Source of the DNA: Richelia intracellularis
Lineage (GTDB): Bacteria > Cyanobacteriota > Cyanobacteriia > Cyanobacteriales > Nostocaceae
Assembly: GCA_000613065.1 (NCBI GenBank)
Contig: CBZS010000468.1
Span: 1 to 32,884, forward strand
DNA: 32,884 bases
Direction: 5' to 3'
Shown here: piece by piece, positions 3,226 through 32,884 of the stretch
How the letters are laid out: the number at the start of each line of letters is the position of its first letter
How positions within the stretch are numbered: the stretch's first letter is position 1
Translations under genes and position numbers: made by a program
Notes under the pieces: generated by a model
Databases searched by the model: none
What the model was told of the DNA's origin: nothing
The model's input: the letters and a program-made list of their open reading frames with translations, nothing else

Positions 3226-3316
3226 GCCGTTGCATAAGTGCGGGATGAATTAGCGTTTGAAACCGTTGATAAATCGTTGAAAATTTAGTGAAATCATCCC
3301 CTGATTCAGCAACGCC
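3226..3316. repeat. 91-bp palindromic MITE-like element, copy 1 (arms A/B)
   Basis: Left end GCCGTTGCATAAGTGCGGGA is type A with one mismatch in the tip. The right end, read inward, is GGCGTTGCTGAATCAGGGGA, type B. Length is exactly 91 bp as in all other copies. No target duplication is evident (left flank ttctcagc, right flank ggcaacag). Confidence 0.9.
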
Positions 3317-5709: not shown

Positions 5710-5800
5710 GGCGGTGCATAACTGCGGGATGAATTAGCGTTTGAAACCATTGAAAAATCGTTGAAAATTTAGTTAAATCATCCCCTGATTCAGCAACGCC
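5710..5800. repeat. 91-bp palindromic MITE-like element, copy 2 (arms A/B) with 8-bp target duplication
   Basis: The left end GGCGGTGCATAACTGCGGGA is type A with two mismatches. The right end is type B. Both flanks carry the octamer CAATATTT (5702-5709 and 5801-5808), a perfect direct repeat as expected for a target-site duplication. This is one of the two best proofs that the element moves by transposition. Confidence 0.93.
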
Positions 5801-7896: not shown

Positions 7897-7920
7897 TTCA
7901 TCCCGCACTTATGCAACGCC
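7830..7920. repeat. 91-bp palindromic MITE-like element, copy 3 (arms B/A)
   Basis: Reads from a type B end (GGCGTTGCTGAATCAGGGGA) to a type A end (CCCGCACTTATGCAACGCC). It abuts the truncated FAD dehydrogenase, and its TAA (7894-7896) ends that frame. No target duplication (left CGGGGACA, right CAAAATAC), and no remainder of the dehydrogenase follows. This indicates a deletion after, or together with, insertion. Confidence 0.92.
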
Positions 7921-10689: not shown

Positions 10690-10780
10690 GGCGTTGCTGA
10701 ATCCGGGGATGAATTAGCGTTTGAAACCATTGATAAATCCTTGAAAATTTAGTGAAATCATCCCCGGATTCAGCAACGCC
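10690..10780. repeat. 91-bp palindromic MITE-like element, copy 4 (arms B/B)
   Basis: Both outer arms are the type B variant GGCGTTGCTGAATCCGGGGA and its exact complement, so the ends can pair perfectly. Relative to other type B arms (TGAATCAG) both arms carry the same change (TGAATCCG), a paired change on both sides of the stem. No clear target duplication. It lies immediately upstream of the EamA fragment and 67 bp before the DM13 gene. Confidence 0.92.
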
Positions 10781-10827
10781 GGCTATACTAATGTTAATAG
10801 AGCAATCGAGTCTTAGACTAGACTTGT

Positions 10828-10833
10828 TATAAT
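10828..10833 (+). promoter_or_regulatory. Candidate -10 element for the DM13 lipoprotein gene
   Basis: A perfect TATAAT lies 13 nt before the ATG at 10847. A -35 match is not apparent. If used, the transcript leader would be only a few bases long, which fits the lack of a Shine-Dalgarno sequence. Confidence 0.35.
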
Positions 10834-10846
10834 TCAAGTCTTATAT

Positions 10847-11296
10847 ATGCGATTAGCTTACATCACACTTACTAGTCTTACAGCCTTACTCACAGTAAGT
10901 TGTTCTCCTAGCAGTATTTCTCCACAATCTGATACCACAGCAGTTACATCAAAACCAAGAGCTACCAAGACTTATCAGCCTGGTGTATTTCAAACTGCAG
11001 AGCACACAACCAGGGGAAATGTAAAAGTAATCACAGAAAATGGTAAAAAGTTTATCGAATTTGATAAGAACTTTAAAACAGACAGCGGTCCAGATTTATT
11101 GGTAATTCTTCATAAGGATAAAACATTACCAAACTCTGGTATAAAAGAAAGAGACTACATCAGTGTTGCACCCTTAACCGAGACAAGCGGAACTCAAAGA
11201 TATACAATTCCTGAGAAAGTAGATTTGCAAAAATTTCAATCAGTGGCTATTTTGTGTCGCCAATTTAACGCCACTTTCGGCTATGCCCCCTTATAA
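10847..11296 (+). CDS. DM13-domain lipoprotein
   Basis: 149 aa with a lipoprotein signal: hydrophobic N-terminus, lipobox TVSC with Cys19, then a Ser/Thr-rich linker. The rest matches a DM13 domain (GVFQTAEHTTRGNVKVITEN, FKTDSGPDLLVILHK, YTIPEKVDLQKFQSVAILCR, FNATFGYAPL). DM13 domains are proposed to act in redox or electron-transfer reactions outside the cell membrane, and the Cys in AILCRQFN is the conserved one. The mature protein should be tethered to a membrane facing the periplasm. The downstream DUF4079 (b561-like) gene was probably its membrane redox partner, now dead. Intact; only the leader is unusual. Confidence 0.88.
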   Translation: MRLAYITLTSLTALLTVSCSPSSISPQSDTTAVTSKPRATKTYQPGVFQTAEHTTRGNVKVITENGKKFIEFDKNFKTDSGPDLLVILHKDKTLPNSGIKERDYISVAPLTETSGTQRYTIPEKVDLQKFQSVAILCRQFNATFGYAPL

Positions 11297-11347
11297 ACTG
11301 ATGCAAAATATATTGCATTTACAACAGGTTGTATTTACAGATATTTT

Positions 11348-12064
11348 ATGGTTATTACAGATCTTCTCAGATTGATTCATCCAGCACTCGCGGTAATTAT
11401 CGTATTTCCCCTAATTGGGACTGCAGTTAATTTAGCATCGCAGTCAAGACAAAGACGTTTGCAAACTGCTAACAAAGGTAAGAGTAAAATTCCTCCAGTA
11501 GCAGGTCCAGAGCATCGATGTTTAGGAGAACTACTTACAGGTGCAGTTGTAGGTTTAACTTTGTTAGGATTAGCTTACCCAATTGCCAAGAATATCATTA
11601 AAAAACAATTGTGTTTTTCTCCTACCACTGTTTTTATTATCTTGATGTTTATAGCTACAGTTGCATCTTTGGCATTTCTTTTCAAAGCAAAAAAGAAACT
11701 ATGGCGAGGAACTTTTGCAACTTTAACTGGTATGGGTTTATTAGTTATTGGTGCTCAATATGGGGTATATCATCGTAATAATGAGTGGTATTGGTCTCAC
11801 TACTACTATGGTATTATAGCCGCCTTGCTGATGATTTTATCCCTAGCAATTATCCCATAAATTTATAAATATAGATCCCATCGCTGGCGCATTATTCATA
11901 CGATATTAAATTGTATCGCTCTCCTATTATTCATTGGTCAAGGTTTCACTGGAACTAGAGATTTACTATAACTACCTTTAAGTTGGCAGGAATATTATGT
12001 CTATCAGTGCAATTTGAAAAAGAAAACTTGTCCTCCCCTACCTAATCCTAAACTATTAAAGTGA
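11348..12064 (+). pseudogene. DUF4079 (cytochrome b561-like) membrane protein, two nonsense codons
   Basis: The reading frame has several membrane helices (LIHPALAVIIVFPLIG, LLTGAVVGLTLLGLAYPIAK, the segment ending AFLFKAKKK, GLLVIGAQYGVYHRN), then the expected C-terminal part YRSHRWRIIHTILN, LLFIGQGFTGTRDLL and LPLSWQEYYVYQC. TAA codons stand at 11858-11860 (LAIIP*IYKY) and 11969-11971 (RDLL*LPLSW). At both places homologues, as I recall them, have Glu, so each looks like GAA to TAA. There is no frameshift. The stop at 12062-12064 overlaps the start of the next remnant (GTGA). Conserved histidines typical of haem ligands are visible, but the protein would lose its last helices. Confidence 0.8.
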
Positions 12065-12690
12065 AACAGATAAGAAATACTTTAAATAAATTAGGCCCTA
12101 ATTCTTTAAGAGTTAGTTTAGCTATTGGCATTGCTGGATTTTCCGCCGTTGAACTGGGTAGTCTAGCATTTTTGACTACCTGGAAAATACAGCATATTTT
12201 AATTGATAGTCATAAGCAAAATCTATAACAATTAGTAAATCGCTTACCTCAACATGTAGAGCTTTACAGTGAAATTTTACCTTTACAAACATCACTGTAA
12301 AAAACAGTTAAAGTTTTAACAAATAACAATAAATTATTGTGTTTAAAATACCAGGAGAACAAAATATGAGTGAAGTCTAGCTCTTTCCAAACAGTATCTG
12401 TACCTATCCAGAACAAATTATTTTCTCTCACCCAGATGCCTATTAAGCCACAAATAAATCAAGTAAATCAAAGGTATTTTGTGGTATGCAGTAGTCCTCT
12501 GAAAATTAAAGATAAATTCGTTGGTGAATTATCAGTAGCTCATGATATTAGCCGTGAACAAACCATGTTTTTAGCAATGGTACAGAGGGCACCTCGATTA
12601 ATCAAGTGTTAGGTAATGTGAGGGGGTTCGAAGAACTACAAGAAAGTGAAGTTGGGCAAAAAATAGCTCAACCGGAACGATTTCTAGTTG
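12061..12690 (+). pseudogene. Membrane-anchored sensor (probably histidine kinase), N-terminal remnant
   Basis: Begins GTGAAACAG overlapping the DUF4079 stop. The frame gives MKQIRNTLNKLGPNSLRVSL, then a transmembrane helix (AIGIAGFSAVELGSLAFLTT) and an extracytoplasmic region with nonsense codons after SHKQNL and LQTSL and further damage near 12370. Later, RYFVVCSSPLKIKDKFVGEL and SVAHDISREQTMFLAMVQ look like the end of a sensor domain before the second membrane segment. No kinase core (H, N, G boxes) is present: the sequence runs into an IS5-type transposase at about 12.7 kb. The kinase call is inference from this layout. Confidence 0.45.
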
Positions 12691-12735
12691 AATTCTGGCT
12701 CAAGAGAGCCAATTTAGACGCAATTATCCCACAGC

Positions 12736-13774
12736 TTATGGATTTTGATTCTCCCAAAATCCATAAGGTTTGAAGTTGTAGACTAAATTCTTCACTCCAA
12801 TAGTCGCCTTGACTGACTGCTTACCAATGGAACCCATTAACTTGCCTCCCATTTCATTAACCCAATGACCAAAAACGTGTTCGACCTTAGCTCTGACTTG
12901 AGAACGCTCTGGATTATCTTCTTTGTGTTTTGCAGTCAATGGATGATTGGGGTAGGCTCGTTCATGAATGTGACTGAAGAATTGTAAAATCTGTAGAATC
13001 CATTCAATAGATTCACTACCATAGGCACTATCTGCCCAAACCTCTTCCCCCTGGTTTTGCTCATCCAACAGTGCCCCTAACACTTGGGAATCATGCACTG
13101 AGTGAGGTATCCGTGACTTGATAGCGACGAATAAAACCGTACTCCACATCAGTATCGATGTGGTTTTTATAACCAAAGTAACTCTGACCATTCTTTTTTG
13201 TCCAGGGAGCATCGGTATCCTTGTGGGACAAGGGATGAGGCTTTTGCTGCCAACTTTCGGTAATTTATCCTTGGGCAAGTTATTGCTTCTCTTCCTTAGT
13301 ATTATGTTGCTTGGGAACTGGAATCAGTGTGGCATCTACTATTTGACCCCCCTTAGCTTGGTAGCCTTGGTCTCTCAGGTCGCGATCAAATTAATTGCTC
13401 AAACAGTTCTTCAATAAGACCCTGCTGCTTCAACTGCTGCCGAAATAACCAAACTGTAGTTGCATCTGGTACAGGTTCTGCTAGTCCCAAGCCCAAAAAT
13501 CTCATGAACGATAGTCGGTCATTGACCTGGTATTCCAGTTCTTCATCACTGATGTTATGTTGTACAGTTGTTGCAGCACAAGCATTTTTAACATGACTAT
13601 TGCATCTATGGGCTTTCGCCCAGCATTCTTTTTTCTGGGCTTGTCATGCACTTGTTCTAAAATCGGACGAAATTATGACCACGGCACCGTCTCGTCTAAC
13701 TTCATCAACAGGGTCTTCTTGCTTTCTAACTTCTGGTATCGCTGTTCAAGTTCCCCGACTTTTTTTTCTTCCAT
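12736..13774 (-). pseudogene. IS5-family transposase, multiply disrupted
   Basis: Pieces in order on the minus strand: VGELEQRYQKLESKKTLL (start 13774), LEQVHDKPRKKNAGRKPIDA, SDEELEYQVNDRLSFMRFLG, DATTVWLFRQQLKQQGL, KGGQIVDATLIPVP, SYFGYKNHIDTDVEYGFIRR, VWADSAYGSE, SQVRAKVEHVFGHWVNEMGG and KNLVYNFKPYGFWENQ. This is the full plan of an IS5-group enzyme, with DAT, ADSAYGS and the RAKVEHVFG helix visible. A TGA-type stop after VPWS and several frameshifts break it; only the last 180 codons (13278-12736) are continuous. It has truncated the IS4-type gene beside it. Confidence 0.8.
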
Positions 13775-13802
13775 GGCGATTCAACCCCAGCTTCTGCTCT
13801 CC

Positions 13803-14393
13803 CTATACTCTCATCTCGCGAGCTACTTGCTCAATTTTTCGAGGTGCCCGAATACGAATACAAAAAGGAATAGATTTCTGAACTAAGTAACTCAACCAGT
13901 CTTTCTCAATAAATTCTCTGTCTGCGGTTACATAAGCAATGTTCTGGTTTGGGAAGATACGTTGAAAGCGGTGTAACAATGCTTTGCGTTGATGGGCGTA
14001 ACTATTTGAGCGATTTGCTAGAAATGTCCACAATAATGGAACCGCAACTCCTTTATAGGCAATACTCAACATTAAAAAGTTGTGCATTTGATTGCCAAAT
14101 TCACACTGTGTTCTATCTAGTATCACTACCCAATCTTTCTCTACTTCTATCCAAGTAGTAATGTTACGTGCAAATTCGACATAATCAATACGAAACTCCC
14201 GAAAAAACCTTTGTAACCGCTTCTAATTTGATGCCGCAAGTGTCTTACCCACGAAGGCTGTTGACAGTTGAGATAAATTAACACTGCGTACTCTTATCAC
14301 TGCTACTAAAAATTGTGCCAAAAGTGTTAATCGTGCACCATGCCACTGAAAGTGCTTTCCTAGAATTAGGCGTAATCTATTAAACTCGGACAT
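13803..14393 (-). pseudogene. IS4-family transposase, N-terminal half
   Basis: From ATG at 14393: MSEFNRLRLILGKHFQWHGA, FLVAVIRVRSVNLSQLSTAF, then a TAG at codon 57 (14223-14225), KRLQRFFREF, WVVILDRTQCEFGN (first catalytic Asp region) and AYVTADREFIEKDWL (second Asp), up to RIRAPRKIEQVAREMRV. The final catalytic Glu region is missing because the neighbouring IS5-type sequence begins just past 13803. It is therefore both nonsense-mutated and truncated, and inactive. Confidence 0.75.
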
Positions 14394-14445
14394 AGGGTTT
14401 CGTTTTCATTTTTATACCAATTTAAAATGAAACCCTTTTCCTGGC

Positions 14446-15217
14446 TTGTTTACACCTTTTTTGTCCTGTACCGAGGCAGGCACAGACTCAGTAAACAGAA
14501 CACACAAGAAAAAATTGTCGCGGGAATTGACCACATTATTTGGCACAGTAATCGCCAATCGAATCGGTTATGGAGGAAGAAAGATAAATACCCTATTTCC
14601 TTTGGATGGGGAGTTTAATCTACCAGCACAGCAATATTCTCATGGACTAAGACAGGGATATTATCCATGTGATTGAGTATTTGTGGAAAGCTGCATTTGT
14701 CTTTTATTCTCACACTTCAACACAGGCAGAACCTTGGGAGAGCAAACGTTTACAGCTTATCCTTGAAGGTAAATCAAGTTCAGTTGCCCCAGGTATGGGC
14801 CCCAGTGCCACTTTACCCAAACTCACCCCCCAAGAACGTAAACCCGTGGATACCTGTGCTAGATATTTACTTAACAATGCCAAATACCTCAAATATGACG
14901 ATTACTTAAAAGCTGGATTCCCCATGGCCACGGGGGTGATTGAGGGTGGTTGTCGCCACCTGATTAAAGACAGGATGGATATCACTGGGGCTAGATGGAC
15001 CATGAGGGGTGCTGAGGCTGTTTTACCCCTGGGTTCTTTATACATCAGTGGCGATTGGGATGAGTATTGGCAGTTTCATCCACAACAAGAACATAAACCC
15101 AATCACCTGGCTTTGTACTCTAGTGGTATTCCTTTGATTAAGCAAGTTCTCAAAGCTCGTTGTTCTACTACCCCTCCACCTCTTCCAATACCTGTCTAAG
15201 TTCCACTCCCCCTCTTA
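14446..15217 (+). pseudogene. ISKra4-family transposase with internal deletion
   Basis: The first piece gives RELTTLFGTVIANRIGYGG and FPLDGEFNLPAQQYSHGLR. The next in-frame family motif is DIIHVIEYLWKAAFVFYSH, at about 14660, in a different frame. About 150-200 residues holding most of the catalytic core are missing at this junction. The C-terminal 170 residues are then intact (YLKAGFPMATGVIEGGCRHL, RMDITGARWTMRGAEAVL, GDWDEYWQFH) to the stop at 15197-15199. A related copy at the right window edge shares sequence to about CTCCC-TCTTA, which marks the probable right end near 15217. Not autonomous. Confidence 0.8.
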
Positions 15218-15234
15218 GCACCCAAATTAATTTT

Positions 15235-15325
15235 GGCGTTGCATAAGTGCGGGATGAATTAGGGTTTGAAACCATTCATAAATCGTTGAAAATTTAGTAA
15301 AATCATCCCCTTATTCAGCAACGCC
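15235..15325. repeat. 91-bp palindromic MITE-like element, copy 5 (arms A/B)
   Basis: Left end GGCGTTGCATAAGTGCGGGA (A); the right end, read inward, is GGCGTTGCTGAATAAGGGGA (B variant). Flanking octamers TTAATTTT and TTTCTTTT agree at only 6 of 8 positions, so a target duplication is doubtful. It lies between the ISKra4 remnant and the 3' end of rnc. Confidence 0.92.
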
Positions 15326-15379
15326 TTTCTTTTTTTCATTGACTGCCAAAGCTAACTACATCATAATTCTCATCTGTTA

Positions 15380-16099
15380 TCATGACTTTTGCGGATGATT
15401 AATTGATAAAAATGCTACTTTTGCTGCTGCTTGTTCCGCAGCTTTAATGGAACGCCCCTTGCCATTACCTAACTTTTTCCCATTGAGCCACACCTCAGCT
15501 ATGAACCGTTCTTTATTCTGTGTAGGGGAGGGTGTTTCTACCACTCTGTATTCTGGTAAAACTTTAAATTGGGCTTGAGTCCATTCTTGTAAAGCCGCTT
15601 TATAGTTGAGTCTAGCAGGATCGCGTCGGATCTCGGCGGCGAGTTTACAAAAGTGACTGTCTAACCAGGGGCGAATTAAATCTAAATTGTTGGTGCTGAG
15701 ATACAATGCACCAAGAACAGCTTCAAAAGCATCGGCCAATCGGGATTGTTGCCCCATGCGATCGCCACTAGCACTACCTGCTACTAGTAAGTATAATTGC
15801 AAACCATATTCCTTCGCCAACTTCGACAAAATGCGATCGCTTACCAATACAGAACGAATGGCAGCAAAATCTCCCACGGGAAAATCAGGGTAATTCTCCC
15901 ACAAAACTACAGCTGCCACTAAACGTACTACTGCATCCCCGACAAACTCCAATTGTTCATAATTTTCGGAATCTGAAACAGAAGGATGGGTAAGTGCCAA
16001 GTCAAGTAAATCCCACTTTATTGGTTCTTCTTGTGACAAGCCTAATTTTCTAACTAGAGTTTCGAGTTGGCGTTGACGACGTGGATAAGCAAGTTTCAT
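15380..16099 (-). CDS. rnc: Ribonuclease III
   Basis: 239 aa. RNase III cleaves double-stranded RNA, including rRNA precursors, as a homodimer in the cytoplasm. The catalytic domain carries the signature NYEQLEFVGDAVVRL (residues 46-60) with the acidic residues that bind Mg2+, and the second acidic cluster DAFEAVLGALYL. The double-stranded RNA-binding domain occupies about residues 155-235 (NYKAALQEWTQAQFKVLPEY, GKGRSIKAAEQAAAKVAF). Length and domain order are normal. It lies downstream of rnpB on the same strand with about 300 bp between, an arrangement that groups two RNA-processing genes. MITE copy 5 is 54 bp beyond its stop. Confidence 0.95.
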   Translation of the reverse strand: MKLAYPRRQRQLETLVRKLGLSQEEPIKWDLLDLALTHPSVSDSENYEQLEFVGDAVVRLVAAVVLWENYPDFPVGDFAAIRSVLVSDRILSKLAKEYGLQLYLLVAGSASGDRMGQQSRLADAFEAVLGALYLSTNNLDLIRPWLDSHFCKLAAEIRRDPARLNYKAALQEWTQAQFKVLPEYRVVETPSPTQNKERFIAEVWLNGKKLGNGKGRSIKAAEQAAAKVAFLSINHPQKS

Positions 16100-16402
16100 T
16101 AAAGCATTTTTGAGAATTTAAGACGATTTATTTACTGATGGATGGGAGTTAAAGCTCATACAATATCAGCTTTAAGGACAGATGACTTAAAATTTGATTT
16201 TGAGGTTTAAGGTGTCAACCAAAAGATAAGTTCCCTGATAGATGTAATTTGGGCTTTAATACCGCACCGATAACTGCCAAAAGCTATATTGAAAACAAAT
16301 TAAAGGGTTTGTAGTAAACACTTTAATTGTTATATGAGCAATTTATCGCTCACTGCGAACCTGATAATCTTTATTTACTAGCTTACCGAAAATTCTGGGG
16401 AA
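16100..16402. other. Non-coding gap between rnpB and rnc
   Basis: Intergenic DNA that should contain the rnpB 3' flank and the rnc promoter. No further gene or strong hairpin identified. Confidence 0.5.
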
Positions 16403-16841
16403 GGAGAGAGTTGGTAGTAAGCCGGGTTCTGTTCTCATCAGTCTATTAACTCATGAGGGCGGTTATCTATCTGGGATGTTTGTTACCAAACACCTCTAGC
16501 GGCTCTAGTTTAACGGAGTAGGGAAAAGACCAACCGTAACTCCTTTTACCTTGCTTCCAACCGGGGTTTACCGAGCCAACGCCTCTCGACGTTGCTGGTG
16601 CGCTCTTACCGCACCTTTGCACCCTTACCTGATTTAGTTATCAACTCCTAGTTATCAGCTCATCACGGTTCACTGATAACTATTGACTGATAACTGAAAT
16701 AAGGCGGTATTTTTCTGTGGCACTATCCTCACGATCGCTCGCACTGGGCGTTACCCAGCAAGTCTGGTCTTTCGGAAGCCCGGACTTTCCTCAAACCGGT
16801 AATTTCTACCGATCTGTAACCGCCTACGCCTACTCTCCCCC
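16403..16841 (-). ncRNA. rnpB: RNase P RNA
   Basis: The catalytic RNA of RNase P, which removes 5' leaders from tRNA precursors. On the minus strand it starts near GGGGGAGAGTAGGCG, contains the conserved GAGGAAAGTCCGGGC block near the 5' end (paired region P4) and ends with AGAACCCGGCTTAC and ACTCTCTCC, which pairs with the 5' end as P1. At about 440 nt it is long for a cyanobacterial rnpB. The extra length is a stretch at about 16635-16705 with repeated TGATAAC/GTTATCA heptamers, the kind of short tandem repeat known from helix P12 of heterocystous cyanobacteria. Ends are estimated from pairing and may be a few bases off. Confidence 0.95.
16635..16705 (-). repeat. STRR-like heptamer insertion in rnpB
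   Basis: Two GTTATCA copies on the + strand side and two TGATAAC copies on the other side form inverted heptamer repeats that would extend one helix of the RNA. Heterocystous cyanobacteria are known for short tandemly repeated repetitive sequences here. Confidence 0.6.
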
Positions 16842-16848
16842 ATTATTC

Positions 16849-16854
16849 AGTGTA
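16849..16854 (-). promoter_or_regulatory. Candidate -10 element of rnpB
   Basis: On the minus strand TACACT stands 7 nt before the expected 5' end of the RNA. No convincing -35 box was found. Confidence 0.4.
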
Positions 16855-16926
16855 GTCTTTTTGTGACATATGGGGAAAGACTTGTCAGTTATTCGATCTC
16901 ACCGCGTCACCGCGTCTCCCTACACT

Positions 16927-17631
16927 CTACTTCTTCTTATTCCAGGGAAGGGCATAAGTCCAGGGAAGTTTTTTAATTATAAAAGGGCAATTAATAATGC
17001 AAACTGGGGGTACATTTGTTCCTTGAGCAATACCATAGGCAGCATTTGCTGTTCGGAAAACTAAATCTAAGGAAAATTCCAAATCGAGCTTTCCACTCAT
17101 AAAATTGCTGTACATTTTTTTCTGGGGTTTTCCTCCCTTTTGTAAGCCAGGAATATTTGCGATGGGGTTACCTGGGGAGTATATACCGGTTTCTTTATCA
17201 CGTTTAAATACATCTTCGGCAGTCACTGATTCTTTGAGGGTTTTACCAGGAACAATTAAGCTAGGGATCTGGGGTACAGCTAAATCCCTGATTAAGTCTG
17301 GTGATTTCCGAATGACTCTCCGTGATCGTTGTTCGATACCTACAATAGAACTATTATCCCAATCAACATAAACTGCTAAATCCTCAGATTTATTTTTAAT
17401 ACTAATGGATAAACTATCCGGCTCATCTATAGGATACATCCCTTTTAAAGAAAAGGATATATCCAATTTTTCTTCCAAATTTTGTTTTTTTAGTTGTTCA
17501 GCAATAGTTTTTTTTGGATCGAACTCTACCTTCATGCGATCGGCAATAGAGTCAACCATACGATTAAAAGTATAGGTGATGCCGATAATATACAGCGTAA
17601 ATACAACTAAATCTAAATCGCCATTATTCAT
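16927..17631 (-). CDS. Hypothetical membrane-anchored protein (234 aa)
   Basis: The N-terminus has one hydrophobic segment (LDLVVFTLYIIGITYTF, about residues 6-22) that may anchor the protein. A charged linker follows (RMKVEFDPKKTIAEQLKK), then a long beta-rich domain (LDISFSLKGMYPIDEPDSLS, LAVYVDWDNSSIVGIEQRSR). The C-terminal region has KLDLEFSLDLVFRTANAAYG and VCIINCPFIIKKLPWTYALP. No known domain is recognised, and no catalytic motif is seen. I believe similar proteins are confined to cyanobacteria. The reading frame is intact, divergent in nothing obvious from neighbours, and separated from rnpB by about 85 bp. Function unknown. Confidence 0.7.
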   Translation of the reverse strand: MNNGDLDLVVFTLYIIGITYTFNRMVDSIADRMKVEFDPKKTIAEQLKKQNLEEKLDISFSLKGMYPIDEPDSLSISIKNKSEDLAVYVDWDNSSIVGIEQRSRRVIRKSPDLIRDLAVPQIPSLIVPGKTLKESVTAEDVFKRDKETGIYSPGNPIANIPGLQKGGKPQKKMYSNFMSGKLDLEFSLDLVFRTANAAYGIAQGTNVPPVCIINCPFIIKKLPWTYALPWNKKK

Positions 17632-17907
17632 AATCTAGAATGTAAAATCCCCCTGTGACTTTGGCAATCCATAGCCAATTTAAACTTATGATTTCATCAT
17701 GGTAAATTAGCACATATTTTTTTTAACTAACCACTTCACCACAAAAAGGATACCAAACCAATGCCGATCACTATCATTGGTAATTAAATACTGATTTTTA
17801 GAGTATGATAGGTAGCGATCGCCAATTCTATCAACGGTGTTACATCGCGCTCGCTTACTTACATCCTCATTTACATCACAATCGAGTTAACGCGTGTAAC
17901 GGAAATT
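17632..17907. other. Non-coding gap
   Basis: AT-rich intergenic sequence with one HIP1 octamer near 17817. No gene seen. Confidence 0.5.
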
Positions 17908-18303
17908 CTACCAACGACTCTTAGCACTAGTATTACCGTTATTATCTATTGCCCACACTCTCCACCTATCTGGTTGAGCTCCAACAAAGTTAAAGTTGTA
18001 GCTGGTGTTAGTAACGTTATCTTGAACCTTCCATGTTCTACCAACATCTGTACACCAACGACCCCTTTGACAGCAATGATAGCAGTCTATCTCGACTCCA
18101 TACTTAGCCAGACCACTTACCGTAGACCATTTTAATATTGTGTTGCGTGGGAAGTTATTAAAAACGGTTCCACTAGCTGGCGATAACTCCCTTGGTGTAG
18201 ATATACTTCGTCGTGTTCGTCTAAAGCTGTATTGAGATGTATAATTATGTCGTATGTCGATTACTACCATCTTTGGCGTTGCATAAGTGCGGGATGATTT
18301 CAC
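17908..18303 (-). pseudogene. Secreted/binding-domain protein fragment, N-terminus lost beside a MITE
   Basis: The conserved part is RELSPASGTVFNNFPRNTIL, KWSTVSGLAKYGVEIDCYHC, WCTDVGRTWKVQDNVTNTSY and FVGAQPDRWRVWAIDNNG. This looks like an extracellular beta-sandwich of the fibronectin-like type found in cyanobacterial secreted proteins; the CYHCC cysteines are notable. The 5' end of the open frame (KSSRTYATP) is encoded by MITE copy 6, so the native start is missing or lies in another frame. With the element and one target copy removed, this frame is shifted by one base relative to the upstream secreted-protein remnant. The two may be halves of one ancestral gene or separate genes. Confidence 0.5.
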
Positions 18304-18365
18304 TAAAATATCAAGGATTTCTCAATGGTTTCAAACCCTAATCCATCCCGCACTTATGCAACGCC
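18275..18365. repeat. 91-bp palindromic MITE-like element, copy 6 (arms A/A) with 8-bp target duplication
   Basis: Both arms are type A (GGCGTTGCATAAGTGCGGGA and its exact complement). CCATCTTT flanks both sides (18267-18274 and 18366-18373), a perfect 8-bp duplication. It interrupts a minus-strand gene: before insertion that gene read FKDG-SNRHTT-stop, now FKDG-ALHKCGMD-stop. Confidence 0.95.
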
Positions 18366-18745
18366 CCATCTTTAAAGAGGGTGAAACTTTGCAGCCTAAT
18401 TTGGTTGTGCCCTCTACCATAAAGCCTCAATATTAATAGTGTATTGGCAAAACGTTTACTATATCTAGCAGTTGCAGCTTTATCGCGAACGCTAACATTA
18501 TTGCCATAAGTATTAAGTACTACAGTACCCCAATTACAATCCCTAGGATGGCACTTACCAAAAACTCGAATATTTAATCTATTTCCCCCTCTGGATGAAA
18601 TTACTAAGCGAGTGATACCACGGGTATTAGAATTGGCATTTACCCAATTCCCCACAAAATCTCTGGGTGCAGCAATGGCATAACTGGCTGAACCAGCAGC
18701 TAAAACTACACTCAAACTAGCAATGGCTAATGTTTTTTTTTACAT
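18338..18745 (-). pseudogene. Small secreted protein, stop at codon 2 and MITE-replaced C-terminus
   Basis: A good ribosome-binding site (AAGGAGAA) precedes ATG at 18743-18745, but codon 2 is TAA. Beyond it the frame is a clean signal peptide (KKTLAIASLSVVLAAGSA, ASYAIAAP) and a mature domain of about 100 residues (RDFVGNWVNANSNTRGITRL, VFGKCHPRDCNWGTVVLN, LLILRLYGRGHNQIRLQS). The two cysteines in KCHPRDC could form a disulfide. The last residues (ALHKCGMD) come from MITE copy 6. Initiation at an in-frame TTG (codon for LSVV) would remove most of the signal peptide. So the gene is probably silent. Function unknown. Confidence 0.7.
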
Positions 18746-18823
18746 CTCTATTATTCTCCTTATTAATATGGAGGGAAAGTTTGTTACATAGAGCTTCCAA
18801 ACCTTTTTTGACTGCGGGCAAGC

Positions 18824-18973
18824 TCAACTTTCCACAAAATGTAAAATGGCATGAACGACTGTCAATAAAATATCTGCGATTGCCCTTAATAAAACTCTAT
18901 AGAATGCGTAAAAAGGAATATAAGCCGCCTTCTTAACGGATTGAGGAACCTCAGGATAATTAATGGCAGGCAT
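18824..18973 (-). CDS. 49-aa hydrophobic small protein
   Basis: Too short for normal ORF calling, but preceded by a perfect ribosome-binding site (AAGGAGG) 5 nt before ATG at 18973. It starts MPAINYPEVPQSVKKAAYIP, continues FYAFYRVLLRAIADILLTVV and ends HAILHFVES. The C-terminal two thirds is hydrophobic or amphipathic and could lie in or on a membrane. It runs toward the damaged secreted-protein gene (about 80 bp apart, same strand) and could share its transcript. No family recognised. Confidence 0.55.
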   Translation of the reverse strand: MPAINYPEVPQSVKKAAYIPFYAFYRVLLRAIADILLTVVHAILHFVES

Positions 18974-19626
18974 ATCGACCTCCTTGCTTTGTCTGGGGAC
19001 GCTTAAAGATACTTGCTTCTTTCTTCTATTGTGGCTCTTTACCCAGAGGAAATGGGCTGTAACGAAACAATCTTAATACTGTCAATTAAAAACAATATAA
19101 ATAAAAAACCTAACTCTTTTCTTCCTATTGACTCTCAGTAACTAAATTCTCATTTGCAGTGAAGCCAAAAACGCGATTGCTCGACTGTTAATACTAAGAT
19201 AACTATACACAAGTCTTACAGTTTTGATGTGCAGGAGTGGGTGACTGGAAAGTCACTGTTTCAGACAGTTTAATTGTTGAACTATGATGCAGATATTTAC
19301 AACATAATATTTTTGACACTGCTATGTAGGCTCATGTTTACCTTCTAAAGTACCTTTATATGTAAAAGAAGTAACCCATTATGTTTGTAATTACTAATAT
19401 GAGGAATAAAAAATATTCACAAAAAACTATTATTTCCCATGATATTTTATTAGAAAAACTTTTGCAAAATCCTTATGCAACCTTTAAGAAAAACCTATTT
19501 ATTCTTATCGCAAAAAATCTAAAGTTTTGTTAAGATACAAGTGCCAGTAAATTTTCAGCGAAAATTTAGTTTTCCGTCGCTGGATGAAGTAAATGGTACT
19601 AGCACAATAGAGTTGAGAAGCAAGCG
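18974..19626. other. Non-coding gap between divergent small genes
   Basis: About 650 bp of AT-rich DNA between the minus-strand 49-aa gene and the plus-strand 53-aa gene; promoters for both are expected here. No gene, tRNA or strong hairpin was recognised. Confidence 0.5.
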
Positions 19627-19788
19627 ATGACCACCTATCTCTTTTTCGATGAAGCCCTACGGATGTTTGTCAACGCCTTTCTAATTTCAGTTTTTCTGTT
19701 GATTACAGTCTCCGGTATCGGCTTAGCAGTTGTTGAATCCGTCGAAAAAACCAATACCCGTCATACTTCCCCAAAGCACTTTCGTTAA
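19627..19788 (+). CDS. 53-aa single-helix membrane protein
   Basis: ATG at 19627 to TAA at 19788. The protein begins MTTYLFFDEALRMFVNAFLI, with one clear membrane helix (about residues 14-36: the stretch from FVNAFLI to GIGLAVV), then a polar tail SVEKTNTRHTSPKHFR. The size and layout resemble small accessory subunits of photosynthetic or NDH-1 complexes, but I do not recognise it as any named one. The ribosome-binding site is weak. It lies 170 bp upstream of the TerB-family gene on the same strand. Confidence 0.6.
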   Translation: MTTYLFFDEALRMFVNAFLISVFLLITVSGIGLAVVESVEKTNTRHTSPKHFR

Positions 19789-19959
19789 AATATAGTAAAA
19801 GAAATAACCTAGCATATAAAACCCTTTAACTCCTGTGTTACCTAAAGCATAATCCTGGGAACACTAAAGTACATCAGCCTTCTTAGGCTATATTTTTTAC
19901 ATCAAACACGTGTTTGTACGTAAAAAGAGAAGAGGTATTATTGAATGGAGTAAATGACA

Positions 19960-20412
19960 ATGGGTTTATTTGATAAGAATGTATTAGACTCTCAGAGTCA
20001 AGTTAAAGATCTTCTCAGTCCTGCAGAAGCTGTTGTTGCTATCATTTTAGCTGCGATCGCTTCGGATGGTTATATGTCCCAAGAAGAAGTGCATCGTGTC
20101 TCGGCGATTTTGTCTAGGATGAAGTTGTTTCAGCCATATGCTAATGATGAAATCCTGGGGATGTTTGATAAACTTCTTAATATGTTACGCACCGAAGATA
20201 TAGACTCTTTATTTAGAGCAGCGCAAGCTTCTTTACCAGAAAATTTAAAAGAGCCAGCCTTTGCGTTAGCGACAGATATGGTACTGGCAGATGGGGTCGT
20301 GACAAGAGAAGAACAAGGTTTCTTAAACGATCTCTACTACTGTTTGGGTATTGCTAGTGATGTAGCCAATCAGATTGTGCAAGTTATGTTGATCCCACAT
20401 TCCGCAGGTTAG
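19960..20412 (+). CDS. TerB-family protein with IS-encoded C-terminus
   Basis: 150 aa from ATG 19960 (MGLFDKNVLD), chosen because GGAG lies about 9 nt upstream. An in-frame ATG two codons earlier (19954) would be only 3 nt from it. The TerB fold is visible as two repeats: LSPAEAVVAIILAAIASDGY with MSQEEVHRVSAILSRM, and FALATDMVLADGVVTREEQG. The acidic DG residues may bind metal. TerB proteins are linked to tellurite resistance and stress, but the cyanobacterial role is unknown. The last five codons (PHSAG) and the stop come from the inverted end of the IS1634-type element inserted at 20394. The original ending, LIKNRG then TAA, is still readable at 21944-21964. The core domain is complete, so function may be kept. 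Confidence 0.88.
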   Translation: MGLFDKNVLDSQSQVKDLLSPAEAVVAIILAAIASDGYMSQEEVHRVSAILSRMKLFQPYANDEILGMFDKLLNMLRTEDIDSLFRAAQASLPENLKEPAFALATDMVLADGVVTREEQGFLNDLYYCLGIASDVANQIVQVMLIPHSAG

Positions 20413-20705
20413 TTAGCAAAGAAGATAATATTTACGACAGACAGCACCAAAAAACTGTAGGATCCAGCACCGCTCCTCACTGAGGTTGGAAATCTGTTTC
20501 AAAGAAGCGAACGTTAATAAATGAATTGACATGAAACATTGAAACACCCAACGTAAAGTAGGAGTGGCAGTTGGTTTACTTAACTGATTTTGAATTGTTT
20601 GGGATGCTCGTTTTAGAGACAGGGTAAGCGCATCTAATTTTGTAGTGAAAATCACAGATTGTTGTACAGAATTGTGAGGTATGTCTTGATTGTCAAGTGC
20701 GAACA
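20413..20705 (-). pseudogene. IS1634-family transposase, C-terminal piece
   Basis: Reads LTLSLKRASQTIQNQLSKPT, ATPTLRWVFQCFMSIHLL, LSEERCWILQFFGAVCRK and ends YYLLC. This is the typical C-terminus of cyanobacterial IS1634 transposases (QNQLxKPTATPTLRWVFQCF). The upstream boundary near 20700 is uncertain. Confidence 0.75.
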
Positions 20706-20711
20706 CCAACG

Positions 20712-20921
20712 ACGGGCACTTCGTGCCTAAGCGCAGGCTACGCCAACCCCCTTTGGGGGGGAACTGGAGGGGCATCGCCAAAAAAAAATTTGACGCAACT
20801 GGGGAACGCTTCCCTAGATTCGGTGGAGCCAGGTAGGGGCATCAACACCTTGAGTAAGCCCAATAAACACTCATACCCCCACCTGGCACTCCCCTACGCC
20901 ACCCAATCTTCCCCAGTTGCA
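20712..20921. repeat. Hairpin-rich insert with a 128-nt stem-loop
   Basis: Starts with short hairpins (GGGCACTTCGTGCC; CCCCCTTTGGGGG). Then GCAACTGGGGAA (20794-20805) pairs with TTCCCCAGTTGC (20910-20921). Inside it GATTCGGTGG pairs with CCACCCAATC, and GTAGGGG with CCCCTAC, giving a long bulged stem. No protein is recognised. It lies between the broken IS1634 C-terminal piece and the ISAs1 fragment. It could be a MITE, an RNA element, or IS-derived. Confidence 0.45.
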
Positions 20922-21152
20922 GGAACACTCGTGGGGCAAAAAAATGGAGATTTAAGTATTAAAGAAGTTAAGTCGTATGCTAAGGACGCAAAGGGTCTAT
21001 CTTAACTGAACGGGTTAGTCTAATGGTATCTCTGACAAAAAGGCTTGCGCCTATGGGTTTCAAATCTTCAAAACCAAAGATTAAAAGCTCAAAAAATTTG
21101 AGTATAGCCAATGCCACTGCATTGACAGAAAAAATGTCATTTTTGGTGTGTT

Positions 21153-21591
21153 CCTATTTCTCAACTGCAAACTTTGCATAACCAAGACAATTGGGTTGGT
21201 CTTAAATGGGTTGTCATGGTTGTGCGGGTACCACATCTTTGGAATAAAACAACCCGTGCGTGAAGTTTAGTTTTATCTAACTAGTTTAAATTGTGATGCT
21301 CGTAACTTAGCACAAGTGATTCGTCTTCATTGGGGTGTGGAAAATGGGTTGCATTGAACTTTAGATGTCACTTTTTCTGAAGATGGTTGTCGTGTCCGTA
21401 CTGGTCATGCTGCACAAAACTTCGCACTTCTGCGGCGAATAGCTCTTAATGCTTTAAACCTAGAGCAATCTTTGAAACGTAGTAATCGCCAAAAATCTAA
21501 TGGAGCCGCTATGGATCATAATTATATGCTGACTGTTCTTACTGCTTGTTTATCCCAACATGATGAGACCTCTCAACCCGCTTGTCAATAG
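21153..21591 (+). pseudogene. ISAs1-family transposase, C-terminal fragment
   Basis: Pieces: LQTLHNQDNWVGLKWVVMVV, then after stops and a frameshift LNCDARNLAQVIRLHWGVEN, GLH*TLDVTFSEDGCRVRTG, HAAQNFALLRRIALNALNLE and MLTVLTACLSQ, ending TAG at 21589-21591. HWGVENGLHWTLDVTF is the hallmark of ISAs1 (H-repeat) transposases; here the Trp is TGA. It abuts the N-terminal piece of the IS1634 transposase. Confidence 0.8.
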
Positions 21592-21898
21592 AATTTGAGA
21601 TAGGCTTACCCTGCAAGCGATCATCGTTCAAATGTTCTGGTTGTATTCCCTCTCCCAATAAATGTTTCGTTGCAATCCCTTCAAAGAACTTCTCAAATAA
21701 ATATAGTGGTGCACTAATAAAGCTTAAGCCATTGAGAATCATAGCTTTGACCACTTGGCCTGCGCTGATTATTTATTGGGGATGAGTTCCAAGCAGTTGG
21801 TTGAACAAATCAACCAAACTCATTTCATCAATAATCCCTGCCACTATGCCTAAGTGATCGATATCTTGTACTTTGATTTGTGATTCTGAAAAACTCAT
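21592..21898 (-). pseudogene. IS1634-family transposase, N-terminal piece
   Basis: From ATG at 21898: MSFSESQIKVQDIDHLGIVA, GIIDEMSLVDLFNQLLGTHP, Q, TAA at codon 42 (21773-21775), IISAGQVVKAMILNGLSFIS, APLYLFEKFFEGIATKHLLG and EGIQPEHLNDDRLQG. This is the IS1634 N-terminus, cut where the ISAs1 fragment begins. So it has both a nonsense mutation and loss of the catalytic middle. Confidence 0.8.
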
Positions 21899-21964
21899 AT
21901 TTCAAAAATACAACATTTTGCGATCGCACCTGCGGAATGTGGGTTGATTAAAAACCGAGGATAA

Positions 21965-22379
21965 TTAGTTGTGGGTAATGGAAATTCCTTCCGAAAGAAA
22001 ACGAAGTAAAAATAAGGAAGAAGACCAATGGTTACCTCCTTCCTTGCTTTGTAATTATGTCAATATTTAATAGTTAGGCCCGGATTTAGCTAATCTCGCT
22101 TAGTTCCCCATGAATTACCTGTGCCGAAGAAGTATTAATTTATTTGGCACTTTTTATTATGAATATATGGTTGATATTTTACTTAATTTTGTAGCAATGT
22201 TTGTATTGCTAGTTTATTTTGTCCAGAAAAAAATCATTGATTTAGAACTATTTGGCCTCGATTCCCTTGTTGTATATTAAGGTGTTTGTCCTCATAAATA
22301 AAATGATTGGCTAGAGTGCCAAATGGTTTTAACCCAAGAGCTTTAATATATTAAAATCCGCAAAAATACTGGAATCATC
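21965..22379. other. Intergenic region upstream of murF
   Basis: No firm gene. A short open frame (22167-22280, 37 codons, MVDILLNFVAMFVLLVYFV...) would encode one membrane helix, but it lacks a ribosome-binding site and is doubtful. The murF promoter should lie here; no strong box was identified. Confidence 0.4.
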
Positions 22380-23747
22380 ATGGCTTGCTCTGCAACTTTG
22401 AATCAATTCATCGATGTCCTCAACGCTAAAGCTGTCAATTTATCGGCAGATGCTTTGACACAAATCAGTACAGGAATACAAACAGATACCCGGATTATCA
22501 AACCAGGTGAGGTGTTTGTAGCTTTACGGGGAGACAAGTTTGATGGCCATGACTTTATACCTATGGCGATCGCAAAGGGGGCAATTGCTGCCATAGTTGA
22601 TTTTAAATATCAAGACGCAGATGTTCCGGTATTACAAGTTGGGGATACTTTAGCAGCATATCAGCAGATTGCTAGATGGTGGCGCGATTGTTTTTCCATA
22701 CCAGTAATTGGGGTAACTGGTTCTGTGGGTAAAACTACGACCAAGGAGTTAATTGCTGGTGTTTTAGCTACCAGGGGTAAGTTGCATAAGACCCATGCCA
22801 ACTTTAACAATGATATTGGTGTGCCGAAAACTTTATTGGAGTTGGATGCAGACCATGATTATGCTGTAATTGAAATGGCAATGCGGGGTGCGGGACAAAT
22901 TGCGGAGTTGACGGATATTGTTAATCCCACCATTGGGGTGATTACCAATGTGGGTACAGCACATATTGAGTTACTGGGTTCAGAAACAGCGATCGCTGCC
23001 GCGAAATGTGAGTTATTAGCGCGAATGCCCCAGGATAGCGTGGCAATCCTCAATTATGATAATCGTCTGCTCATGGCAGCAGCAGCACAGGTATGGCAAG
23101 GCAAAGTAATTACCTTTGGTTTTACTGGGGGAAATATTCAAGGTGATTTTATTGATTTACATACCCTAGAAATTGACGGAATGCGGTTTAATTTACCCAT
23201 GCCTGGTCGACATATTGCTGCTAATTACATGGCTGCTTTAGCCGTAGCCCAAGTTTTAGGCATTGATTGGAGTGATTTACAAGCTGGTGTGAAGGTGGAT
23301 ATGCCTGGGGGGCGCTCGCAACGTTTTGTTTTACCTAACGATGTAGTAATATTAGACGAAAGTTATAATGCTTCACCAGAAGCAATGATTGCCTCCTTGA
23401 ATTTATTGGCACAGACACCAGGCAACAGAAGAATAGCCGTATTGGGTGCAATGAAAGAATTGGGAGAGCGATCGCAACAACTACATCAGGAAGTGGGCAA
23501 AACGGTACAAGAGTTACATTTGGACGGTCTATTAGTGTTAGTTTCTTGTGAAGATGCTAAGGAAATTGTGAGCCATGCAGTTGGTGTGCCTAGCCAAAGT
23601 TTTAGTAGTCATGCAAAATTATTAGCGGGATTGAAAGCATATATTCAACCAGGCGATCGGATTTTGTTTAAAGCCGCCCATTCTGTAGGTTTGGCTCGGG
23701 TGGTTAGTCAGTTGCGAGATGATTTCTGCCTCAATGCCAGTTATTAA
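22380..23747 (+). CDS. murF: UDP-N-acetylmuramoyl-tripeptide--D-alanyl-D-alanine ligase
   Basis: 455 aa, normal for MurF. The enzyme adds D-Ala-D-Ala to the UDP-MurNAc tripeptide with ATP, the last cytoplasmic step of peptidoglycan precursor synthesis. The N-terminal domain has the TDTR motif (about residues 36-39) that contacts the substrate. The ATP loop is GVTGSVGKTTTKE (111-123). The central domain continues with HANFNNDIGVPKTLLELD and VIEMAMRGAGQIAELT. The C-terminal Mur ligase domain carries ILDESYNASPEAM and AVLGAMKELGE. All key motifs are present. It appears to be a single gene; MITE copy 7 starts 14 bp after the stop, followed by a transposase remnant. Confidence 0.96.
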   Translation: MACSATLNQFIDVLNAKAVNLSADALTQISTGIQTDTRIIKPGEVFVALRGDKFDGHDFIPMAIAKGAIAAIVDFKYQDADVPVLQVGDTLAAYQQIARWWRDCFSIPVIGVTGSVGKTTTKELIAGVLATRGKLHKTHANFNNDIGVPKTLLELDADHDYAVIEMAMRGAGQIAELTDIVNPTIGVITNVGTAHIELLGSETAIAAAKCELLARMPQDSVAILNYDNRLLMAAAAQVWQGKVITFGFTGGNIQGDFIDLHTLEIDGMRFNLPMPGRHIAANYMAALAVAQVLGIDWSDLQAGVKVDMPGGRSQRFVLPNDVVILDESYNASPEAMIASLNLLAQTPGNRRIAVLGAMKELGERSQQLHQEVGKTVQELHLDGLLVLVSCEDAKEIVSHAVGVPSQSFSSHAKLLAGLKAYIQPGDRILFKAAHSVGLARVVSQLRDDFCLNASY

Positions 23748-23761
23748 GGCTATTACTTTCT

Positions 23762-23852
23762 GGCGTTGCATAAGTGCGGGATGATTTCACTAAATTTTCA
23801 ACGATTTATCAATGGTTTCAAACGCTAATTCATCCCGCACTTATGCAACGCC
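23762..23852. repeat. 91-bp palindromic MITE-like element, copy 7 (arms A/A)
   Basis: Both outer arms are type A (GGCGTTGCATAAGTGCGGGA and complement), while the inner part of one arm keeps the type B sequence (GATTTCACTAAATTTTCAAC). No clean target duplication (left TACTTTCT, right GTTTCTAA). It borders the 5'-truncated IS5-type gene, whose open frame starts inside the element (MVSNANSSRTYATP). Confidence 0.93.
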
Positions 23853-32513: not shown

Positions 32514-32884
32514 TAAGACGGGGAGTGGAACTTAGACAGGTATTGGAAGAGGTGGAGGGGTAGTAGAACAAAGAGCTTTGAGAACTTGCTTGATCAAAGG
32601 AATACCACTAGAGTACAAAGGCAGGTGATTGGGTTTATGTTCTTGTTGTAGATGAAACTGCCAATACTCATCCCAATCGCCACTGATGTATAAAGAACCC
32701 AGGGGAAAAAGAGCCTCAGCACCCCTCATGGTCCATCTAGCCCCAGTGATATCCATCCTGTTTGTCTTTAATCAGGTGGCGACAACCACCCTCAACCACC
32801 CCCGTGGCCATGGGGAATCCAGCTTTTAAGAATCGTCATATTTGAGGTATTTGGCATTGTTAAGTAAATATCTAGCACAGGTAT
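32514..32884 (-). pseudogene. ISKra4-family transposase, second copy (C-terminal part, runs off the window)
   Basis: The last 371 bp are almost identical, on the opposite strand, to 14850-15217. It carries RMDITGA equivalents (MDITGARWTMRGAEALFPLG), GDWDEYWQFHLQQEHKPNHL and the same C-terminus (TTPPPLPIPV). Two indels separate it from the first copy: 4 extra bases in GACAAACAGGATG (32756-32768), and one base missing in GACGATTCTTAAAAG (about 32830). So this copy is frameshifted at least twice. Its right end is near 32514. Confidence 0.85.

What the first reader, a model, noticed from the sequence alone, without database searches (positions are those of the whole stretch)
10690..23852. The two arms of the 91-bp element are being converted to match each other
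Between the constant tip GGCGTTGC and the constant inner GGGATGA lie 8 variable bases, type A (ATAAGTGC) or type B (TGAATCAG). Copies 1, 2, 3 and 5 are A/B; copies 6 and 7 are A/A; copy 4 is B/B with the same private change (TGAATCCG) in both arms. In A/A copies the inner sequence of the second arm remains B-like, so only the outer block was swapped. Paired changes suggest repair through a hairpin (snap-back conversion) or selection for a perfect stem, as in REPIN-like or RNA-forming elements.
Basis: partly seen in the sequence, partly recalled or inferred. Interest (0 to 1): 0.65.

Follow-up and report, generated by a model that had tools for sequence, protein, structure and literature searches.

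The report
Mobile hairpin copying its own arms
A 91-base mobile element present in hundreds of copies in one cyanobacterial genome has, in about a third of its copies, had one hairpin arm overwritten with a copy of the other, which makes the copies a natural record of a known copying error of DNA.

Summary
The seven 91-bp copies in the window, and about 490 in the whole genome (G000), are a miniature transposon with 8-bp target duplications and ends like those of an IS1-type insertion sequence. Its arms carry different 8-base blocks, B left and A right. In 70 related genomes the 140 copies found are all B/A; searches for A/A and B/B found none there, but G000 has 318 B/A, 110 A/A and 65 B/B. 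So B/A is ancestral and A/A and B/B are derived here. They are not separate lineages by inner sequence. The decisive test: private changes shared by both arms of one copy occur at 10 sites in 114 homotypic copies read (0.5 expected; none of 5000 shuffles as high), but near chance in B/A copies (2 against 1.4) and relatives (3 against 1.9). Hence the arms copy each other within one element, most likely by template switching at the hairpin; whether at rest or during transposition is open. General selection for pairing, an RNA function and REPIN membership are not supported. The process is known; its scale and restriction to one genome are unusual. No single insertion was caught before and after conversion.

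The parts
3226..3316 (-). copy 1, B/A (right tip GCCGTTGC)
5710..5800 (-). copy 2, B/A with A block ATAACTGC and right tip GGCGGTGC; exact 8-bp target duplication AAATATTG
7830..7920 (+). copy 3, B/A
10690..10780 (-). copy 4, B/B, the same private change (TGAATCCG) in both arms; blocks at 10698-10705 and 10765-10772; no recognisable target duplication
15235..15325 (-). copy 5, B/A with B block TGAATAAG; beside the RNase III gene
18275..18365 (+). copy 6, A/A; exact 8-bp target duplication CCATCTTT; blocks at 18283-18290 and 18350-18357
23762..23852 (+). copy 7, A/A, 14 bases after murF; blocks at 23770-23777 and 23837-23844; no recognisable target duplication
32514..32884 (+). copy of a dispersed repeat with an empty insertion site: the 8 bases at 32629-32636 (TTGGGTTT) correspond, with one base changed, to TTGCGTTT that is duplicated around the element in C736:13106 (C82:7344 has one base changed in one half)

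Best explanation
The element is a non-autonomous miniature transposon (MITE) whose ends resemble those of an IS1-family insertion sequence. It inherited two unlike arms, B on the left and A on the right, that pair mainly through an 8-bp outer and a 7-bp inner stem with a mostly mismatched 8-base block between. When the arms meet as a hairpin in single-stranded DNA, one arm is used as template to rewrite the other across the paired stretch (template switching or repair of the hairpin mismatch). This turns B/A into A/A or B/B in one step and carries along any private change of the donor arm. Shown: the polarity, the derived nature of A/A and B/B, and the within-element coupling. Inferred: the hairpin intermediate, the enzyme, and whether it happens at rest or during transposition.
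For: (1) Polarity: B/A in 71 of 217 family genomes (G000 318 copies; 70 others 140 copies, summed by me from the table); A/A and B/B in 1 of 217, G000 only, 110 and 65 copies. The exact A/A pattern has no match in genome contigs, where G000 may be left out. 20 of 20 fetched relatives, best hits of a B/A query, are B/A by eye. (2) Coupling: matched private changes at 10 stem sites (9 elements) in 114 homotypic copies, 0.51 expected, maximum 4 in 5000 shuffles; 153 B/A copies 2 against 1.36 (p 0.40); 20 relatives, tip and inner positions only, 3 against 1.86 (p 0.28). It holds for the 69 homotypic copies with target duplication intact to one mismatch: 5 against 0.42, maximum 4 in 5000. Three of the five matched block types are also found in the donor arm alone of B/A copies: ATAACTGC (2), TGAATTAG (5), TGAATCCG (2). 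(3) Deficit of the swapped type A-left/B-right: 2 of 269 classified against 12.1 expected (p 7e-5); with duplication intact to 1 mismatch, 1 of 163 against 7.2 (p 0.002). Homogenisation within one element does not make this type; free exchange between elements would. (4) Inner haplotypes shared by the types. (5) The block moves as a unit: one arm of 540 (C146:10068) mixes at least two A and two B diagnostic bases (listing). (6) Long-spacer comparison: 11 of 11 IS copies 749-759 bp long keep unlike ends. (7) RNA-parameter folding: B/A -25.8, A/A -44.7, B/B -45.6 kcal/mol.
Against: No insertion was found in both states by proven descent: the one same-site pair of unlike type and same orientation (C82:7344 B/A, C736:13106 A/A) shares only alleles common among empty sites, so it may be two insertions at a preferred site. 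Of the 9 elements with matched changes, 4 have a target duplication intact to one mismatch (one exactly), 1 has two mismatches and 4 have five or six. Two of the 9 share the same change (position 8), so the events may number 8; in B/B copies the matches are in the block only (2; none of tip or inner). Homotypic copies are not older: their share falls from 0.48 to 0.24 with inner divergence (p 0.036), which speaks against slow accumulation in place. The same hairpin geometry in 70 relatives gives no homotypic copy beside 140 B/A ones, so geometry alone is not enough. No clear link of type to orientation against GC skew or the nearest long ORF (counts; no formal test). Amplification artefacts could not be tested on reads.
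Confidence: 0.83

Rival explanations
1. A/A and B/B are separate subfamilies, each founded once and spread by transposition.
For: Homotypic copies have 8-bp duplications intact to 1 mismatch as often as B/A copies (AA 43 of 71, BB 25 of 40, BA 92 of 149), so they either transpose or were converted in place. They are slightly younger.
Against: The four commonest inner haplotypes each contain B/A, A/A and B/B; type is not associated with inner sequence (p 0.22; between-minus-within distance has the opposite sign). Nine homotypic elements carry their own matched private changes. Two common inner sites look freely combined, so exchange between copies could blur lineages; this weakens the haplotype argument but not the matched changes.
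Confidence: 0.08
2. Selection keeps or restores a perfect stem because the hairpin acts as an RNA or as a DNA signal.
For: Homotypic copies have fewer unmatched arm changes (0.65 in A/A and 0.40 in B/B per element against 1.22 in B/A) than their lower inner divergence alone explains (1.15 and 1.05 against 1.53); conversion predicts this too. REPINs show compensatory changes (PMC3116915, passages).
Against: The ancestral and still commonest type has the poorly paired block; B/A copies and relatives show no significant excess of matched changes; a whole 8-base block is exchanged at once; no Rfam match at the gathering threshold.
Confidence: 0.05
3. The homotypic copies are artefacts of genome amplification or of assembly across 91-bp repeats.
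For: The assembly is in 857 contigs; amplification chimeras are often inverted (recalled; how this genome was amplified, if at all, is not known to me). 92 of 270 copies have 3 or more mismatches between flanking 8-mers and some join unlike flanks, which could be recombination or misassembly.
Against: Each block lies within 16 bases of flank, and true pairing of flanks is shown by the target duplication: with at most 1 mismatch 43 A/A and 25 B/B remain, with matched changes still in excess. No element of 270 has a right flank that is a fold-back copy of its left flank. Two A/A insertions occur twice with identical flanks (C160 and C281), though that may be one locus assembled twice.
Confidence: 0.07
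4. Blocks are exchanged between different elements (ectopic conversion).
For: Inner sites 47 and 63 occur in all four combinations at similar numbers among the commonest haplotypes (20, 20, 19, 16 copies), as if copies exchange sequence.
Against: The swapped type is 2 against 12.1 expected and private changes match the other arm of the same element.
Confidence: 0.07

Closest known systems
Quasipalindrome correction by replication template switching
   Same: Unlike arms of an inverted repeat become identical in one multi-base step; spacer inversion is a by-product (PMC8604942, abstract and introduction; PMC7202029 and PMC6357072, passages; PMC8794818, abstract). The two swapped copies here could be spacer inversions.
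   Different: Here in about 175 of 493 copies of one mobile family, in both directions, with 45 bases between the arms, and in one genome of 217 searched.
Miniature inverted-repeat transposable elements with IS1-type ends in Nostocales
   Same: 91 bp, inverted ends, 8-bp duplications, hundreds of copies; IS copies of about 755 bp with the same tip and inner motif, one ORF piece of which matches an IS1 transposase domain.
   Different: The outer blocks of the IS (ATATTTGC, ATAATAGA) are not those of the MITE (TGAATCAG, ATAAGTGC), so this IS need not be the parent; a third of the copies are homotypic.
REPINs
   Same: Two inverted arms and a spacer that fold into a hairpin, hundreds of copies, compensatory changes (PMC3116915, passages).
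   Different: 8-bp target duplications, IS1-like ends, matched changes in excess only in homotypic copies; no RAYT gene was looked for.
Type II MITEs of Anabaena sp. 90
   Same: Cyanobacterial MITEs, 147 complete or partial, 77-541 bp (PMC3542288, passages).
   Different: Stated there to lack evident similarity to the IS ends of their genome; no arm conversion in the passages seen.

Membership tests
MITE (transposase-moved miniature element) | target-site duplication of constant length | tested here: met
   8 bp: exact in 118 of 274, at most 1 mismatch in 166 of 274, against 1 of 274 in one shuffle of the flanks; empty paralogous sites give an overlap of 8 (92 junctions at -8, overlapping loci not removed). 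In the window itself 2 of 7 are exact, one has 2 mismatches, four have 6 or 7
MITE (transposase-moved miniature element) | terminal inverted repeats, short, no transposase | tested here: met
   23-bp ends with variable block, 91 bp in 269 of 274; too short to hold a transposase
IS1-family MITE | ends shared with an IS1-family element in the same genome | tested here: inconclusive
   11 IS copies of 749-759 bp share the tip and inner motifs but not the 8-base blocks; of three ORF pieces searched one matches PF03400 DDE_Tnp_IS1, E 2e-20, two match nothing
IS1-family MITE | mobilised by an IS1 transposase | not testable with these tools
   needs a transposition assay
template-switch arm homogenisation | one arm becomes a copy of the other, donor's private changes included | tested here: met
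   10 matched sites against 0.51 expected in 114 homotypic copies
template-switch arm homogenisation | tract limited to the complementary stretch | tested here: met
   the base just inside GGGATGA keeps its side-specific T (left) and A (right) in 110 of 114 homotypic copies; 3 of 114 (and 2 of 153 B/A) have the same base on both sides
template-switch arm homogenisation | spacer inversion as by-product | tested here: inconclusive
   2 swapped copies, one with exact duplication (C17:2277) and one without (C27:374)
template-switch arm homogenisation | strand bias relative to the replication fork | tested here: inconclusive
   no clear link to GC-skew sign (AA 29 same/29 opposite, BB 22/12, BA 62/70); fork direction is not known for the contigs
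REPIN | no target duplication (recalled) | tested here: not met
   8-bp duplications are present
REPIN | associated RAYT transposase | not tested
   no search for a RAYT gene was made
structured RNA family | covariation kept across members, match to a known family | tested here: not met
   no significant excess of matched changes in B/A copies or relatives; the only Rfam match in the window at the gathering threshold is RNase P

The most novel reading that the evidence does not exclude
This genome has a lineage-specific, highly active arm-to-arm copying process. About 175 of 493 hairpin elements are homogenised here and none was found beside 140 B/A copies in 70 relatives, perhaps because repair is impaired (the exonuclease VII large subunit gene was not found here or in the other held member of the genus) or because conversion happens during a recent burst of transposition through a hairpin intermediate.
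Probability: 0.35. Interest if true: 0.65.

Novelty: new variant of a known kind. Interest (0 to 1): 0.52.

Why it matters
Arm homogenisation of imperfect palindromes is often studied with engineered reporters (as in PMC7202029 and PMC6357072, passages). Here one genome holds hundreds of near-identical imperfect hairpins with two distinguishable outcomes, a known ancestral state from relatives, and private changes that label the donor arm. That makes direction, tract length and rate countable in nature. It also warns that paired changes in a repeated hairpin need not mean selection on an RNA.

Tried and rejected
Conversion in place seen at one site in two states: searched among paralogous flanks. 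The C82/C736 pair looked decisive at first but shares only common alleles with empty sites; C380 (A/A) and C787 (B/A) hold the element at one site in opposite orientations, so sites are reused; C107 and C193 are both B/B. Not counted as proof.

Loss of hairpin nuclease SbcD as cause: a match over the cut-off is present in G000 (207 of 208 genomes). Rejected; whether the gene is intact was not looked at.

Loss of exonuclease VII (XseA) as cause: no match in G000 or its genus mate; a match in 27 of 35 genomes that I chose. But the six other genomes without it (G025, G064, G178, G180, G186, G187) hold 8 B/A copies and no homotypic one. A lead only; that ExoVII restrains such events in E. coli is recalled, and a paper search for the two terms found none.

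Orientation against GC skew and nearest long ORF: no clear signal. Viral contigs: both exact 23-base arms absent. Papers holding the end sequences: none; Richelia with transposases or transposons: nothing useful in the listings. The linkage table at the end failed with an error; the numbers used were printed before it.

Organism: not named by the tools. The nearest named matches of the window's glucose-6-phosphate isomerase are Calothrix sp. MO_167.B12 (90%) and Richelia intracellularis HH01 (84%). Genome size and a 3.2-Mb genus mate fit the diatom symbiont Richelia RC01; that is recall, not shown.

Full report
What is there. The window holds seven copies of a 91-bp element with 23-base ends: tip GGCGTTGC, an 8-base block, GGGATGA. 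The exact arm pattern occurs 725 times in the whole genome G000, reversed control 0.

What it is. In the 1.66 Mb that I read (30% of the genome, contigs chosen because they hold elements, A/A and B/B ones included, so their share is enriched) there are 274 elements, 269 of them exactly 91 bp: 155 B/A, 74 A/A, 42 B/B, 2 swapped, 1 unclear. Flanking 8-mers are identical in 118 of 274 and differ by at most one base in 166 of 274, against 1 of 274 in one shuffle of the flanks; after dropping 4 copies with identical flanks, 92 of 270 have three or more mismatches, and in the window only 2 of 7 are exact. In one dispersed repeat family, the flanks of a filled site meet in other copies with an overlap of 8 bases: 92 junctions at -8 and 2 filled at 91 before removing overlaps between loci; of 94 such rows 68 were alignable without gaps and 58 distinct, 2 of them filled. 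The window's own right end (32514-32884) is such an empty copy. So this is a mobile element with an 8-bp target duplication. IS copies of 749-759 bp with the same tip and inner motif stand in the same genome, 11 in what I read. None of eight that I translated gave one uninterrupted transposase frame (longest stop-free piece 147 aa); IS1 transposases can use a programmed frameshift (recalled), so this does not prove them dead. Of three ORF pieces searched, one matches the IS1 transposase domain (PF03400, E 2e-20) and two match nothing. Their outer blocks differ from those of the small element, so that exact IS need not be its parent.

Which state is old. Among 217 genomes of the family, with up to 3 mismatches and a spacer of exactly 45 bases, B/A is found in 71 (318 copies in G000, 140 in 70 others, summed by me from the table), A/A only in G000 (110), B/B only in G000 (65). 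The B/A count of G000 includes any swapped copies, and at least seven of the 140 copies (G115, G124, G146) have a different inner sequence between the same ends. The exact A/A pattern has no match in a second collection, from which G000 itself may be left out. The 20 relatives that I fetched, best hits of a B/A query, are B/A by eye. B/A is therefore ancestral, and about 175 of 493 copies in G000 are derived.

Are the derived types lineages? Not by inner sequence. The four commonest inner haplotypes each hold B/A, A/A and B/B, 15 of 22 multi-copy haplotypes are mixed, and nearest neighbours agree in type no more than shuffled labels (0.438 against 0.422, p 0.22) (264 elements of 91 bp and clear type, of 270 after dropping 4 with identical flanks; the 2 swapped were left out of the neighbour test). 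A caution: two common inner sites occur in all four combinations at similar numbers, so copies may exchange inner sequence, which would also blur lineages.

Is the copying within one element? Yes, on three grounds. First, private changes shared by both arms: 10 sites in 114 homotypic copies, in 9 elements, against 0.51 expected and at most 4 in 5000 shuffles; in 153 B/A copies 2 against 1.36 (p 0.40); in 20 relatives, tip and inner positions only, 3 against 1.86 (p 0.28). They include tip changes (positions 3, 4, 8) in A/A copies as well as block changes; B/B copies have matches in the block only, and two A/A elements share the same change. The excess holds in homotypic copies with the target duplication intact to one mismatch (5 against 0.42, 69 copies) and in those with three or more mismatches (4 against 0.22, 39 copies); B/A copies give 2 against 0.70 (p 0.15) and 0 against 0.49 in the same groups. 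For three of five matched block types, B/A copies carry the same change in the presumed donor arm only. Second, the swapped type, A left and B right, is 2 where 12.1 are expected from the margins (p 7e-5), and 1 against 7.2 among copies with a good target duplication. Homogenisation within one element does not make it, while free exchange between elements would. One of the two has an exact duplication and could be a spacer inversion. Third, the replaced stretch ends at the complementary GGGATGA: the next base keeps its side in 110 of 114 homotypic copies. IS copies with about 710 bases between their arms keep unlike ends in 11 of 11; at the rate of the small element (175 of 493) no conversion among 11 would be expected in about 0.8% of cases (my arithmetic), although their end sequences are not the same.

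How it works. The B/A strand folds with a mostly unpaired block between two stems (-25.8 kcal/mol), A/A and B/B into a perfect 23-bp stem (-44.7, -45.6; RNA parameters). Copying one arm from the other in such a hairpin gives exactly the two products seen. This is the known correction of quasipalindromes by template switching (PMC8604942, abstract and introduction; PMC7202029 and PMC6357072, passages; PMC8794818, abstract). I cannot separate replication template switching from mismatch repair of a hairpin, nor say when it happens. Homotypic copies are somewhat younger by inner divergence (homotypic share 0.48, 0.47, 0.38, 0.24 for 0, 1, 2-3, 4+ changes; p 0.036) but show no trend with decay of the duplication (0.44, 0.38, 0.33, 0.44 for 0, 1, 2, 3+ mismatches). 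This fits conversion in active copies better than slow change at rest, but it is weak. A/A outnumber B/B 110 to 65, unexplained.

Why only here? Not loss of SbcD, of which a match is present. The XseA family (exonuclease VII) has no match in G000 or its genus mate but is found in 27 of 35 genomes that I chose; six other genomes without it hold 8 copies, all B/A. So it is at most part of the cause, and G000 is only 95.8% complete by the tool's estimate.

Limits. No insertion was shown in both states by descent. The C82/C736 pair has unlike types at one site, but shares only common alleles with empty sites; a second site (C380, C787) holds the element in opposite orientations, so sites are reused. 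Amplification artefacts cannot be tested without reads, though each block lies within 16 bases of flank, 68 homotypic 91-bp copies have duplications intact to one mismatch, and no element of 270 has fold-back flanks. Literature was searched only in open-licence papers; I saw no report of this element or of arm conversion in a bacterial MITE in those listings and passages, which does not show that none exists.

Verdict. The mechanism is known, the scale and one-genome restriction are unusual.

Noticed in passing
G000 contigs C82:7344 and C736:13106; C380:698 and C787:4217; C107:933 and C193:3110: The element reuses insertion sites inside dispersed repeats: three pairs with different flanking copies sit at the same base, one pair in opposite orientations.
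   Followed up: partly
G000 C28:18669, C451:5081, C99:37109: Some copies carry one half of a target duplication known from another copy on one side and unrelated flank on the other, as after recombination between copies or misassembly.
   Followed up: partly
window 14850-15217 and 32514-32884; G000: A dispersed repeat with at least 58 distinct junctions read and 223 first-look candidates in the genome; the ORF 14669-15199 that overlaps it matches no Pfam family.
   Followed up: no
G000 C45:3872, C611:5405, C667:13974, C96:2283, C99:32023, C171:14080, C794:27145, C114:18367: None of eight IS1-like copies translated gave one uninterrupted transposase frame, so the element's transposase source in this genome may be dead, frameshifted or elsewhere.
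   Followed up: partly
inner positions 47 and 63 of the element: Position 47 is 45% A and 45% C, position 63 is 63% G and 34% C, at similar frequencies in the three types, and they combine freely over 16 bases, as if copies exchange inner sequence.
   Followed up: no
G115, G124, G146: A different miniature element with B/A-like ends but an unrelated inner sequence (CACGCAAAGGCG...) in relatives.
   Followed up: no
window 16402-16837 (-): RNase P RNA of class A, 436 bases against a model of 367.
   Followed up: no
window 8779-9414 (-) and 23812-24279 (+): Pieces of transposases with DDE_Tnp_1 and DUF4096 matches; the listed ORF of the second starts inside copy 7 of the element.
   Followed up: no
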